Notes under the pieces: generated by a model
The model's database searches: none
Told to the model about the DNA's origin: nothing
The model's input: only the letters and a program-made list of their open reading frames with translations
Source: Negativicoccus massiliensis
GTDB taxonomy: Bacteria > Bacillota > Negativicutes > Veillonellales > Negativicoccaceae
Direction: 5' to 3'
Assembly: GCA_900155405.1 (NCBI GenBank)
Contig: LT700188.1
Span: forward strand, 992,001 to 1,056,000
DNA length: 64,000 bases
Program-made: the position numbers and the translations under genes
Shown: piece by piece, positions 1,347 through 3,919 of the stretch
How positions within the stretch are numbered: position 1 is the stretch's first letter
How the letters are laid out: every line of letters begins with the position of its first letter

Positions 1347-1365
1347 AAAACAAATGCGCAATAAA

Positions 1366-1390
1366 AAAAGCCCCCGCGGGGGCTTTTTTT
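1366..1390. terminator. Intrinsic terminator after gyrA (bidirectional)
   Basis: An 8-bp GC-rich perfect stem (AGCCCCCG/CGGGGGCT) is flanked by A7 on the left and T7 on the right. It can terminate gyrA on the plus strand and the rep fragment on the minus strand, whose stop codon lies 5 bases away. Confidence 0.93.
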
Positions 1391-1394
1391 ATAT

Positions 1395-1679
1395 TCACCG
1401 TTTAAGGTTAAAAAACTTTCGATTTGTTTCAGCTATACAATCTATAAGGTCCTTATTATTAGCAAAGGATGTTGGGTCAATAATCTTTTTAATTTCATCA
1501 AAAGTTAAAACTAAGCTGTATTCACGTTCTTTCATAAGACCACAGATTAAGAAAAAGAGATTTAATTCCCGTGCGGTAAATCCCCCAAACGAAAAAACAT
1601 TCATATCGTTATGATACTTCAATACAATTTTCCCTCCTTTCTGTATTAATGTTTCCACTTCATGATCAATCTTAAACAT
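1395..1679 (-). pseudogene. Truncated RepB/Rep_3-family plasmid replication initiator
   Basis: The 94 residues match the N-terminal winged-helix start of RepB (Rep_3 superfamily) plasmid initiators: a KYHNDMN motif near residues 21-27, then FTARELNLFFLICGLMKE and LVLTFDEIKKI. Full family members run to roughly 300 residues or more, so about two thirds is missing; the frame stops beside the gyrA terminator. The start is convincing (AAAGGAG eight bases before ATG). Upstream on the same strand lies a set of iterons, the expected partner of this initiator. AT-rich composition and codon use differ sharply from gyrA. I infer a relic of an integrated plasmid, probably not functional. The family call rests on motif recognition and not on a search. 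Confidence 0.8.
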
Positions 1680-1790
1680 TTACACCACTCCTTTCAACGA
1701 GTTAGTGCAAATGTACTCATGAAAATGGTATAATACAAAAACAAGGGTACTTTTGCTCTAATATGATCTTCGCCAAAGACATCAATCACC

Positions 1791-1900
1791 CAAAGGTATC
1801 CTTGCCAATATATGATTGATACCTTTGGTTAAGTTTTGGTATAAAAAGAGATACCTTTCAATAAATTTTGATACCTTTGGGTATAAAAAAGATACCTTTG
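1791..1900. repeat. Iteron-like repeats of a theta plasmid origin
   Basis: The core GATACCTTTG(G) occurs as direct copies at 1818-1828, 1850-1859 (last base differs), 1870-1880 and 1891-1900, with an inverted copy at 1791-1800. Start-to-start spacing is 32, 20 and 21 bases, near two or three helical turns. A longer match links 1834-1857 and 1875-1898 (GGTATAAAAA before each core). The array lies just upstream of the truncated RepB gene, as in iteron-controlled Rep_3 plasmids where the initiator binds such repeats. The flanking sequence is very AT-rich. Confidence 0.82.
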
Positions 1901-2063
1901 TGTCTAGAAACCCTTGCCCCGCAAGGCCTCGCGGACCCCTAAAAAGGTTTTAGAAAAGTTATTTAAAAAAGTTAAAAAACACCTTTTTCTTTTTTAACTG
2001 ATAAACAAAAAACTACCGGCTAAAAATAAAAAGCGGCAAGCAAGGAAAGGGAGTTATGAATAA

Positions 2064-2838
2064 ATGAAAAAAGTTTCTTCGGCATTTTATATGCTGGAAC
2101 CAAAGTTTTTCGATGAATTTGGATTACTCGGAAATTTTGGCGGGAAAAATAAGATTAAAAAAATAATCAATACGCCGCACTATATATTTTTTGTAGAGCA
2201 AAAATACTGGGCGGTGCCGGTAAAGAAATTAGATGCAAAGTATTACGGCGCGCGCCGAACGCGTTCTCGGATCGGAAGACTGTATATCGACGTTTTCTTT
2301 TTAGGAAGCAAAGCCTACTTACAAATGGACGAAATGTTTCCCATCCATCCGATTTTTATCAAAGCTCCTTTTTATGAAAATAAAGAAACTCAATCCGGCA
2401 TTATCCGACTGGATATAGAAACAGAAGATCAAATTCTTAAAGCATATAAAGACCAACGAATTTTAGATATTCAAAATATTATCCCTGCCGCCTATGACTT
2501 AACGTATCTTTTAAAGGCTTATGACGAAACAAACACCAACCAAAAACTGTTGTTAGAGATGATTCATCAAAATGCTTCAAAAATAGGCTATATTTCAAAA
2601 TCTTTGCGCGGGGACTGGGACTTTTGTCAAGAAAACCGTGCAGAGCGAAAATTACCGTGATTTTGTTTATTTTATTCCGTCTTCCGTGTGGGGCGACAAG
2701 AAAAAGCTGCTGCGCTGGATCAGTGCGAACGGATTACTGATTGAGTTTGCGGCCAAAGAACTGCAAAGAGATCCGGAAGTAATAAAAGCAGCGGTGGCAC
2801 AAAATCCGGATGCTATGCTGTTATTAGCCAAGAAGTAA
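2064..2838 (+). pseudogene. DUF4116-like protein gene, broken by a single-base frameshift
   Basis: Two overlapping frames (2064-2660 and a continuation ending at 2838) join into one protein if one T is removed from the TTTT run at 2622-2625, giving ...GDWDFVKKTVQSENYRDFV... The last part (LIEFAAKELQRDPEVIKAAV, then AQNPDAMLLLAKK) resembles DUF4116 helical repeats, whose pattern is a residue block with A..L..D..V...AV..N..A. The first 190 residues match no family I recognise. ATG at 2064 has GGAAAGGGAG upstream. The gene is AT-rich like the rest of the island. It may be a true pseudogene, a sequencing error in a homopolymer, or less likely a programmed shift. Function unknown. Confidence 0.6.
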
Positions 2839-2839
2839 C

Positions 2840-2867
2840 TTGAATGTTAGCTATTTCGTGCTAAAAT
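2840..2867 (+). promoter_or_regulatory. Promoter of first antisense RNA copy
   Basis: TTGAAT (2840-2845), 16-base spacer, TAAAAT (2862-2867), the latter preceded by TG to give an extended -10 (TGCTAAAAT). It precedes the first copy of the tandem small RNA unit. Confidence 0.6.
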
Positions 2868-2873
2868 GAAATC

Positions 2874-2938
2874 AGGCGAAACGTACACAGCCAAAGCTAC
2901 AAACGAAAAGGACGGGGGGCTGCCCGTCCTTTTCCCTT
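2874..2938 (+). ncRNA. Antitoxin-like small RNA, copy 1 (orphan)
   Basis: This is the first of two tandem ~102-base units. It has its own promoter, a ~30-base 5' segment and an 11-bp terminator stem (2906-2916 with 2923-2933, AAAAGGACGGG/CCCGTCCTTTT). The unit is nearly identical to copy 2 except in the segment expected to contact the toxin mRNA: AAACGTACACA here against AAACGCATATA in copy 2. No toxin with the matching sequence is visible in the window, so it may be an unpaired antitoxin RNA. The exact 5' end is inferred from the promoter. Confidence 0.55.
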
Positions 2939-2940
2939 AC

Positions 2941-2969
2941 TTGACTAAAAAAGAAACGTGTTCTACAAT
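2941..2969 (+). promoter_or_regulatory. Promoter of antisense RNA copy 2
   Basis: TTGACT (2941-2946), 17-base spacer, TACAAT (2964-2969). This near-consensus sigma-70-type promoter drives an RNA that runs towards the toxin gene. Confidence 0.75.
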
Positions 2970-2980
2970 GAAATCAGGCG

Positions 2981-2991
2981 AAACGCATATA
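2981..2991 (+). repeat. Direct repeat DRa of toxin/antitoxin pair
   Basis: AAACGCATATA, identical to 3122-3132. One copy lies at the 5' end of the antisense RNA and the other within the first codons of the toxin, providing complementarity between the two RNAs. Confidence 0.75.
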
Positions 2992-3007
2992 GCCAAAACT
3001 ACAAACG

Positions 3008-3035
3008 AAAAGGACGGGGGGCTGCCCGTCCTTTT
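3008..3035. terminator. Shared bidirectional terminator of toxin and antitoxin RNAs
   Basis: Eleven-bp stem AAAAGGACGGG/CCCGTCCTTTT with a 6-base loop and A/T runs on both sides. It ends the plus-strand antisense RNA and the minus-strand toxin mRNA (toxin stop at 3042-3044). An almost identical stem at 2906-2933 ends the first antisense copy. Confidence 0.82.
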
Positions 3036-3041
3036 CCCTTT

Positions 3042-3140
3042 CTATTTTCGCCGCTGGAGGTAGTCCTTGTAGGCAGCAAGGACCATACCAACCGCAAGCG
3101 GGGCAAGAAAGGTAGCCCCAAAAACGCATATAACCTCCAC
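3042..3140 (-). CDS. Fst-family type I toxin (small membrane peptide)
   Basis: A 32-residue peptide starting at GTG, with a hydrophobic helix (residues about 4-24) and a charged tail YKDYLQRRK. The core FLAPLAVGMVLAAY follows the Fst/Ldr signature (AP..VG.VL, then a polar C-terminus), so the family call is good although the gene is too short for normal gene finders. A strong Shine-Dalgarno GGGGAGGTG lies 6 bases before GTG and is buried in a 10-bp mRNA hairpin (3144-3171). Fst peptides damage the membrane when their antisense RNA is lost, stabilising plasmids. The neighbouring RepB relic and iterons fit a plasmid origin. The known controls (5' hairpin, paired repeats, shared terminator) are all present. 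Confidence 0.78.
   Translation of the reverse strand: MEVICVFGATFLAPLAVGMVLAAYKDYLQRRK
3122..3132 (+). repeat. Direct repeat DRb within toxin start region
   Basis: AAACGCATATA, the second copy of the 11-base repeat at 2981-2991. In the toxin mRNA it corresponds to codons 4-7, just downstream of the start, where pairing with the antitoxin RNA would block ribosomes. Confidence 0.75.
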
Positions 3141-3143
3141 TAA

Positions 3144-3179
3144 AAACACCTCCCCTCTGTCGGAGGTGTTTCTATTTTA
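3144..3179 (-). promoter_or_regulatory. Toxin promoter -10 and RBS-sequestering 5' hairpin
   Basis: On the minus strand an extended -10 TGCTAAAAT (TAAAAT at 3179-3174) precedes a perfect 10-bp stem, AAACACCTCC/GGAGGTGTTT (3144-3153 with 3162-3171, 8-base loop). The stem includes the toxin Shine-Dalgarno sequence. Such a 5' structure delays toxin translation in Fst systems. No good -35 is visible. Confidence 0.65.
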
Positions 3180-3302
3180 GCAAAATTTTGCCGAATCTAA
3201 AAAATAAATTTACAATCTTAAATATGCATCTTTCTAAAAATCTATAATTCTAATATTTTATCATTCTTAAATGTTGGAATGCTAAGATATTTAAGCAAAC
3301 AA

Positions 3303-3328
3303 AAAAGGACGGGGCATCCGTCCTTTTA
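3303..3328 (-). terminator. Terminator after lipoprotein gene
   Basis: AAAAGGACGG/CCGTCCTTTT stem with a 5-base loop, between the toxin locus and the lipoprotein stop at 3341. Its sequence is close to the two toxin-locus terminators. Confidence 0.8.
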
Positions 3329-3340
3329 AAATGCACGATT

Positions 3341-3757
3341 TTATTCTTCTACAAACTTATCATATTTTTGCGCTTCGGATTTGGAAACCTTTTTAAATGT
3401 ATCTGAATGCATTTTATCGAATCCTACACTAGATAAATCTTCATTAAAAAACAGGGGCCGATGATTTAGCGGGTTGTTATTTGGGTCAGCAACCATTTGC
3501 TTTATATCCGGGTTAAATTTAGATACCCAGTGCGTGGAACTTTTTTTATACTTTCTGTTGTTTTCATCAACATAAAAACCGGAGCATTCATATAAATTAT
3601 CATTATTTTTCTTTTCTAAAATAATAATCGAGCTAACGCCATTTATGTTTTTGTTATAAGCAGTGTACGTTCCCGACACGTCCGGAGTGCTGCTGCATCC
3701 GGCAATAAAGAAGGCCATGCATAATACCGTTAAGAATCCTATCAGTTTTTTTATCAT
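3341..3757 (-). CDS. Small exported lipoprotein, unknown function
   Basis: The 138-residue product has a lipoprotein signal: MIKK, a hydrophobic stretch, then a lipobox FIAGC with the modifiable Cys near residue 21. The mature part is polar and rich in Asn, Lys and Tyr (GTYTAYNKNINGVSS...), with short beta-like segments similar in style to small lipocalin-like lipoproteins, but I recognise no family. AGGAGG lies 7-8 bases before ATG. The gene is AT-rich like the rest of the island and has its own terminator. It is probably part of the acquired DNA between gyrA and tRNA-Ser. Confidence 0.75.
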   Translation of the reverse strand: MIKKLIGFLTVLCMAFFIAGCSSTPDVSGTYTAYNKNINGVSSIIILEKKNNDNLYECSGFYVDENNRKYKKSSTHWVSKFNPDIKQMVADPNNNPLNHRPLFFNEDLSSVGFDKMHSDTFKKVSKSEAQKYDKFVEE

Positions 3758-3895
3758 AATGTCCTCCTAAGTTTTTTAGATGTTAAAATGATAAGTTTTT
3801 AACATCTCAACATTTATTATGTTTTAATTATATCATCTTAAAAGGAAGATGCAATTTTATAAAAAATTTAACTCGCAATATTTATTTCGCGCAGC

Positions 3896-3919
3896 AAAAA
3901 AGCGCGACAGGGTCGCGCT
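3896..3919 (-). terminator. Terminator after tRNA-Ser
   Basis: AGCGCGAC/GTCGCGCT stem (3901-3908 with 3912-3919) with a T run on the minus strand, directly downstream of the tRNA. Confidence 0.8.

What the first reader, a model, noticed from the sequence alone, without database searches (positions are those of the whole stretch)
2840..3180. Complete Fst-type type I toxin-antitoxin module in a Negativicute
A 32-residue hydrophobic peptide (minus 3140-3042) with an Fst-like core (FLAPLAVGMVLAAY) and basic tail is paired with a convergent antisense RNA. All elements known from par/Fst loci are visible: consensus promoter for the antisense RNA (2941-2969), 11-base direct repeats at both 5' ends (2981-2991 and 3122-3132), a shared bidirectional terminator (3008-3035), and a 10-bp hairpin that buries the toxin Shine-Dalgarno (3144-3171). 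Fst systems are known mainly from Gram-positive monoderms, and this gene is too short for standard annotation.
Basis: partly seen in the sequence, partly recalled or inferred. Interest (0 to 1): 0.78.

Follow-up and report, generated by a model that had tools for sequence, protein, structure and literature searches.

The report
Membrane-peptide toxin with antisense RNA antitoxins
A small bacterium with an outer membrane carries a likely membrane-poison gene silenced by an antisense RNA, built like the plasmid-addiction modules of Gram-positive bacteria, plus spare antidote RNAs, one of which matches a poison gene on a plasmid of a sister species.

Summary
In detail: a 32-codon ORF (minus 3140-3042, GTG start), a Shine-Dalgarno-burying 10-bp hairpin, an 11-nt direct repeat, a 12-bp bidirectional terminator and a convergent antisense promoter lie where stated. 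This is the anatomy of a par/Fst type I toxin-antitoxin locus. The peptide has the PXXXG motif and outscores 5000 of 5000 layout-preserving shuffles against a profile of other Fst peptides, but does not reach the curated Fst models: I call it par/Fst-like.

Relatives support this: a second locus in the same chromosome, a 78%-identical one in another genus beside corA, one on a ~3.97-kb circular plasmid of a sister species. Of 24 loci of the class, 20 have a toxin/antisense repeat longer than with any other locus. Fst peptides over the curated cut-off occur in 12 of 380 genomes of the class, so the host range is wider than the finding implies.

One matches the sister species' plasmid toxin, not its neighbour, suggesting anti-addiction. 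Expression and toxicity are untested.

The parts
3042..3140 (-). toxin-like peptide CDS, 32 codons, GTG start, PXXXG motif, net +3 tail
   Evidence: 78% identical homologue in G108 with dN 0.13 / dS 0.56
3174..3201 (-). predicted promoter of the toxin mRNA (TTTAGA-16-TAAAAT, TG before the -10)
   Evidence: the -10 sequence is found at the same place in the four homologous intact loci
3144..3171 (-). 5' hairpin of the toxin mRNA (10 bp) burying the SD GGAGG (3149-3153)
   Evidence: z -3.71
3122..3132 (.). direct repeat copy at the toxin translation start region
2941..2969 (+). promoter of the cognate antisense RNA (TTGACT-17-TACAAT)
2976..3041 (+). predicted cognate antisense (antitoxin) RNA, about 66 nt
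   Evidence: start is inferred from the -10 box
2981..2991 (.). direct repeat copy at the 5' end of the antisense RNA
3007..3036 (.). shared bidirectional terminator, 12-bp stem
   Evidence: 3 of 12 stem pairs change on both sides among 7 homologous units, 1 pair is broken in 2 of 7
2840..2867 (+). promoter of the upstream orphan antisense RNA (TTGAAT-16-TAAAAT)
2874..2938 (+). predicted orphan antisense RNA; 2866-2938 is 69 of 73 nt identical to the cognate unit, 3 of the 4 differences fall in the 11-nt repeat
2905..2934 (.). terminator stem of the orphan antisense RNA
   Evidence: inverted repeat I15
1395..1679 (-). short plasmid replication-initiator remnant (Rep3_N)
   Evidence: E 9.8e-6, 26.4 bits over cut-off 22.4
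1788..1910 (.). iteron-like repeats (ATACCTTTGG) beside the Rep remnant
   Evidence: D3, D4, D7, I7, I9; the name iteron is my inference
2638..2838 (+). DUF4116 fragment directly upstream of the antisense pair; also present before the second locus

Best explanation
This is a chromosomal par/Fst-like type I toxin-antitoxin module lying in plasmid-derived DNA between gyrA and corA. Steps: (1) a mRNA of about 165 nt starting near 3168 (minus) encodes a 32-residue peptide with one hydrophobic segment and a basic tail; (2) its 5' hairpin hides the SD and restrains translation; (3) a convergent ~66-nt antisense RNA from the 2941-2969 promoter pairs with it at the direct repeat over the start region and at the complementary terminator loops, blocking translation; (4) if the antisense RNA runs short, the peptide is made and damages the inner membrane. 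The anatomy is shown by sequence; pairing is predicted; expression, translation block and toxicity are inferred from the known par/Fst systems. The extra upstream antisense RNA is a duplicate whose recognition repeat has changed, so it is predicted to pair poorly with the neighbouring toxin mRNA.
For: All anatomical elements are present. Cognate antisense and mRNA pairs share 11 to 14 nt of exact complement at four loci, against 5 to 8 in the non-cognate combinations of the five intact, cognate units; the fifth pair, G108:C19, has only 7 nt exact, but -30.4 kcal/mol and 0 of 500 shuffles as good. The window pair gives -28.2 kcal/mol, 3 of 500 shuffles as good. Cognate repeats beat all 23 other loci at 20 of 24 loci. 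The peptide changes under constraint against G108: dN 0.13, dS 0.56, 13 of 20 differences at third codon positions. The terminator stem co-varies at 3 of 12 pairs. A profile of nine other Fst peptides scores the peptide 19.6 bits; 0 of 5000 layout-preserving shuffles reach this (maximum 14.0), and among 1481 window reading frames the top one (16.9) is the toxin's own frame, the next 5.4. tblastn of 72,556 plasmids gives 3 records up to E 10, all annotated Fst toxins (E 0.2, 37.5% identity). A homologous module lies on a ~3.97-kb circular plasmid with Rep and Mob genes.
Against: No transcript or toxicity data. The curated Fst and Ldr models are not reached by the window peptide; in the class-wide search with the Fst model the window's genome has only one match at E 0.3 and G080, G108 and G205 none. 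In phage records tblastn gives 19 records at E 2 to 8, 18 of them annotated as holins, so the sequence match alone is weak. The conserved tryptophan is Y here. At the same site G080 kept only the toxin promoter and G205 has no module, so the module is dispensable. The shorter relatives (T2, T3, T5) lack PXXXG, and with the strict profile 27, 12 and 648 of 5000 shuffles score as well as they do.
Confidence: 0.87

Rival explanations
1. Anti-addiction array (an addition to the best explanation, not its opposite): the orphan antisense RNAs at the chromosomal loci act in trans on toxins of incoming plasmids, so that loss of such a plasmid does not harm the cell.
For: The orphan at the second locus (S_AS1) is 95 of 102 nt identical to the antisense unit of the sister species' plasmid. 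Its 5' part has 10 nt exact complement and -20.7 kcal/mol with the plasmid toxin mRNA (6 of 500 shuffles as good), but 6 nt and -8.0 with its neighbour (480 of 500). At DNA level and E up to 0.001, of the whole plasmid only the module has a match in the G000 chromosome, 91% in the antisense part and 82% in the terminator-toxin part. A third, toxin-less antisense unit in G000 has 20 nt exact complement to a G108 toxin mRNA, though it contains toxin coding sequence.
Against: No target was found for the window's own orphan: none of the matches listed in 380 genomes is exact, and the 5 viral contigs with the exact pattern show no Fst-like peptide there. Shared ancestry alone would give the S_AS1 match. 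One plasmid only. No expression data.
Confidence: 0.3
2. Decaying relic: the locus is an integrated plasmid fragment whose module and extra antisense copies drift without function.
For: Rep3_N remnant and iteron-like repeats upstream; only the promoter left at the same site in G080 and no module in G205; broken toxin copies in G108:C19 and G000:C1:32202.
Against: dN/dS about 0.24 against G108 over about 32 codons, intact promoters, stem and repeat, and the same site kept in another genus.
Confidence: 0.25
3. The small ORF is a leader peptide or other hydrophobic peptide (for example a holin-like one) under an attenuator, not a toxin of a type I system.
For: The 5' hairpin also scores as a terminator on the + strand; a weak Rfam Phe-leader match, 26.3 bits against gathering 55; holin matches at E 2 or worse.
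Against: The convergent antisense unit, the locus-specific repeat and the plasmid-borne homologue are not explained.
Confidence: 0.05

Closest known systems
par_pAD1 / Fst of Enterococcus faecalis plasmid pAD1 (PMC7472228, parts 1-3 of 5 read)
   Same: Convergent promoters, bidirectional terminator, direct repeats DRa/DRb with pairing over the start region, 5' stem-loop burying the SD, ~30-residue TM peptide with PXXXG; family on plasmids and chromosomes
   Different: Tail is basic, not acidic; one predicted 5' hairpin here instead of an upstream helix plus stem-loop; a second antisense unit with a different repeat; host has an outer membrane (inferred)
Fst family toxins of Staphylococcus plasmids (record NZ_CP096533.1)
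   Same: 37.5% identity over the whole peptide, same A-P-x-x-V-G core and Y-K-x-x-L before a basic end
   Different: Passes NF033608 (44.3 bits), the window peptide does not
Ldr/Rdl of Escherichia coli (Pfam PF13940)
   Same: Superfamily core; the G108 homologue gives a weak Ldr match, 13.3 bits
   Different: Below cut-off 27, and no match for the window peptide; Ldr loci are regulated in a hok/sok-like way (PMC7472228)
orz-only (orphan antitoxin) loci of E. coli zor/orz (PMC11264685, passages read)
   Same: A type I antitoxin RNA gene kept without its toxin, transcript confirmed by northern there
   Different: Different toxin family; here the extra RNA unit sits directly before a cognate antisense unit and toxin

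Membership tests
par/Fst type I toxin-antitoxin loci | Convergent promoters for toxin mRNA and antisense RNA | tested here: met
   + 2941-2969 and - 3201-3174 (consensus matches only)
par/Fst type I toxin-antitoxin loci | Shared bidirectional intrinsic terminator | tested here: met
par/Fst type I toxin-antitoxin loci | Direct repeats at the antisense 5' end and the toxin start region | tested here: met
par/Fst type I toxin-antitoxin loci | 5' stem-loop sequestering the toxin SD | tested here: met
   (prediction)
[quoted passage not shown]
   the single hairpin starts at the predicted 5' end; true 5' end unknown
Fst/Ldr toxin superfamily | Short TM peptide with P/D/S/TXXXG and charged tail | tested here: met
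   max 19-residue hydropathy 2.37 at residues 3-21, tail net +3; PLAVG
Fst/Ldr toxin superfamily | Conserved tryptophan between TM segment and tail | tested here: not met
   Y in the window peptide; PMC7472228 says the pAD1 prototype has V there and W is not essential
NCBIfam NF033608 / Pfam PF13955 (curated Fst models) | Score over the curated cut-off | tested here: not met
   no match listed for the window peptide; not filed as a member of these models
par/Fst type I toxin-antitoxin loci | Peptide toxic, antisense RNA protective | not testable with these tools
   no experiment
Type III toxin-antitoxin (CptIN) | CptIN toxin with tandem RNA repeats upstream (layout recalled, from no call) | tested here: not met
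   2064-2660 scores 29 bits, cut-off 90; the two RNA units lie downstream and are 102 nt apart

The most novel reading that the evidence does not exclude
Chromosomes of this lineage keep arrays of orphan par-type antisense RNAs, each with its own short recognition repeat, as an RNA-level memory that neutralises the addiction modules of plasmids met before; specificity is switched by changing only the repeat while promoter, terminator and toxin body stay the same.
Probability: 0.25. Interest if true: 0.78.

Novelty: new variant of a known kind. Interest (0 to 1): 0.55.

Why it matters
It describes par/Fst-like addiction modules in diderm Firmicutes, with a plasmid copy, two chromosomal copies and relatives across the class. 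It also gives a clear, cheap test of anti-addiction by a type I antitoxin RNA: a chromosomal orphan RNA and a plasmid toxin mRNA from sister species with matching repeats. The review read here (PMC7472228, parts 1-3) says the function of chromosomal par loci remains largely obscure.

Tried and rejected
Curated models: Pfam and NCBIfam scans gave no Fst match for the five peptides of this family. Rfam: nothing near gathering. Phage records: 19 matches at E 2 to 8, 18 of them annotated holins, treated as chance. Plasmid records: the plasmid-borne relative (T3) and the whole 3973-bp plasmid have no match, nor has window 1350-3900 as DNA. The single-peptide search of 300 class genomes gave 31 with a match at E up to 10, but only G000 and G108 below E 0.03; the profile A1 matched 110 of 380 at E up to 0.5, mostly weak matches that I did not follow. 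Target of the window's orphan RNA: a pattern with up to 2 mismatches matched in 124 of 380 genomes; no listed match is exact; the reversed control also matches in many genomes, but the output gives no total and I did not count it. The 5 viral contigs with the exact pattern have no Fst-like peptide or SD at the site. The core DNA pattern gave 0 viral contigs and 1 genome contig, whose length equals that of G108:C7. A first Fst profile (12 peptides) included L114 and L115, found with a profile holding the window peptide, and L129; one search repeated it without those three, and its lower scores are the ones used. Two units (S_AS-1 and G108C19_AS0) contain toxin coding sequence, so their large duplex energies are not comparable with the others. 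No structure prediction was run. Hits of the antisense model at E 0.0035 and worse were treated as palindromic terminators; only one (L137) was read, and it looks like an ordinary terminator.

Full report
What is there. Window 2840-3201 holds a compact locus of facing transcripts. On the minus strand a GTG-started ORF (3140-3042) encodes a 32-residue peptide with a hydrophobic stretch (residues 3-21, mean hydropathy 2.37) and a basic tail. Its predicted mRNA starts at a 10-bp hairpin (3144-3171) that pairs the SD GGAGG (3149-3153); 0 of 200 shuffles fold as well. On the plus strand a TTGACT-17-TACAAT promoter (2941-2969) faces it; both transcripts would end in one 12-bp stem (3007-3036) that scores as a terminator on both strands. 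The 11-mer AAACGCATATA occurs at the antisense 5' end (2981-2991) and over the toxin start region (3122-3132). This is unlikely by chance: 37 of 20,000 shuffles and 0 of 2048 other window pieces reach it.

Relatives. The window lies in a 1.36-Mb single-contig genome, G000. Of the 4 genomes of its family held, the peptide search finds G000 and G108, another genus, 78% identical. A small profile (A1, the five peptides of this family and one Staphylococcus peptide) finds intact modules at G000:C1:34829, G080:C9:2255, G108:C7:124 and G108:C19:7575 besides the window's, remnants at G000:C1:32202 and G108:C19:7230, and one partial match in G205 (E 0.5), which I do not count. G108:C7 sits next to a tRNA-like stretch and the corA-like gene as in the window. 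In G080, of the same genus, the same site keeps only the toxin promoter next to gyrA; in G205 the gyrA to corA interval has no module (read by eye). G080:C9 is a 4068-base contig with 95-base identical ends, so probably a circular plasmid of about 3973 bases, with Rep3_N (E 7.6e-18) and MobA/MobL (E 7.6e-21) genes. The window module itself follows a short Rep3_N remnant and iteron-like repeats, so it probably arrived on a plasmid (inference).

Which organism. The neighbourhoods of the two G000 loci encode a YadA anchor protein and an ShlB-type outer-membrane transporter, as expected of a diderm. No call names the species of the window. 'Sister species' for G080 rests on the tool's one genome per species and its 'same genus' label.

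Does the repeat code specificity? Using the antisense part before the terminator and the first 110 nt of each mRNA, the cognate exact complement is 11, 11, 14, 14 and 7 nt at the five intact loci; the last, G108:C19, pairs at -30.4 kcal/mol (0 of 500 shuffles as good). Non-cognate combinations of these give 5 to 8 nt; some still reach -24.2 kcal/mol in duplex energy, so energy separates less sharply than exact match. I then took 24 loci: the five of this family and 19 that I chose among the better hits, from 14 other genomes of the class (fetched, none dropped). At 20 of 24 the cognate repeat is longer than with any of the 23 others; the exceptions are G108:C19, L111 (no repeat found) and the related pair L127/L128. 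Cognate lengths run 4 to 17; of 552 swapped pairs 500 give 5 to 7. In the same call a perfect stem of 9 bp or more follows the stop at 18 of 24, and my strict pattern finds an antisense promoter at 12 of 24. The toxins of the second locus and of the plasmid differ at 5 of the first 6 codons and after that only at 2 codons, both synonymous: the repeat region changes while the body stays.

Wider range. The NCBIfam Fst model is over its cut-off in 12 of 380 genomes of the class; of its 14 control genomes 1 is over it. G000 has one match at E 0.3; G080, G108 and G205 have none. So par/Fst peptides are present elsewhere in this class, while this family's peptides lie below the model. The window peptide still scores 19.6 bits with a profile of nine Fst peptides that pass NF033608 (eight from this class, one from Staphylococcus), against a maximum of 14.0 in 5000 layout-preserving shuffles. 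Among 1481 window reading frames the best is the toxin's own frame (16.9 bits), the next 5.4. The G108:C7 peptide scores 30.2; T2, T3 and T5 score 6.0, 7.9 and 1.0, with 27, 12 and 648 of 5000 shuffles as good. The second locus is tied to the window by DNA homology, 67% over all 361 bases.

The extra antisense RNAs. Upstream of the cognate antisense unit lies a second one (2840-2938), 69 of 73 nt identical; 3 of the 4 differences are in the 11-nt repeat (p 0.01, a test chosen after seeing them), and its match to the neighbouring toxin falls to 5 nt, no better than shuffles (127 of 500). The second locus has the same arrangement. There the orphan unit is 95 of 102 nt identical to the antisense unit of the G080 plasmid, matches the plasmid toxin mRNA (10 nt, -20.7 kcal/mol, 6 of 500 shuffles) and not its neighbour (6 nt, -8.0, 480 of 500). 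At DNA level only this module of the plasmid matches the G000 chromosome. An antisense model finds 7 full-length strong units in the 4 genomes, all of them sequences it was built from; the next match is at E 0.0035. This fits anti-addiction, described for chromosomal antitoxins in general (PMC3920263 and PMC12548467, passages read), but shared descent alone could explain it, and no target of the window's own orphan was found.

What is known. The Weaver review (PMC7472228, parts 1-3 of 5 read) lists the same anatomy as conserved in par loci, calls them ubiquitous in Firmicutes, and says that the repeats are poorly conserved and that the pAD1 antitoxin does not protect against the chromosomal E. 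faecalis system. Searches for Fst with Negativicutes and for Fst with Selenomonas gave no paper; Fst with Veillonella gave one review on biofilms, and type I with Negativicutes and small RNA one paper on polymorphic toxins, both seen only in the listing. The library holds open-licence papers only, and two papers sought were not held, so I do not claim that the host range is unreported.

Verdict. A known kind of module in mechanism, correctly spotted, in a less studied group, with one unusual addition: paired antisense units with different repeats. The module reading is strong; the anti-addiction reading is a testable proposal.

Noticed in passing
window 2064-2660: ORF with a sub-threshold match to the type III toxin CptIN (29 bits, cut-off 90), apparently frameshifted against the DUF4116 ORF 2638-2838
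   Followed up: partly
L046 1186-1320 (G000:C1:32185-32319): Antisense-type promoter driving a unit that contains antisense of a toxin start region fused to a terminator: 20 nt exact complement to the G108:C19 toxin mRNA
   Followed up: partly
L048 1741-1965 (G108:C19): Two degraded toxin copies, one behind an antisense-type promoter without its own terminator (read by eye)
   Followed up: partly
G089 (class relative, family f14): Nine matches to the Fst model at E up to 0.5 in one genome, five over the cut-off; the three tested have clear repeats: a local expansion
   Followed up: partly
window 3341-3757: Small lipoprotein-like gene next to the module, with related sequence beside the second locus and in G080 (by eye)
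   Followed up: no
L130 (G080:C9): Probably circular ~3.97-kb Rep3/Mob plasmid with no DNA match in 72,556 plasmid records at E up to 0.001
   Followed up: partly
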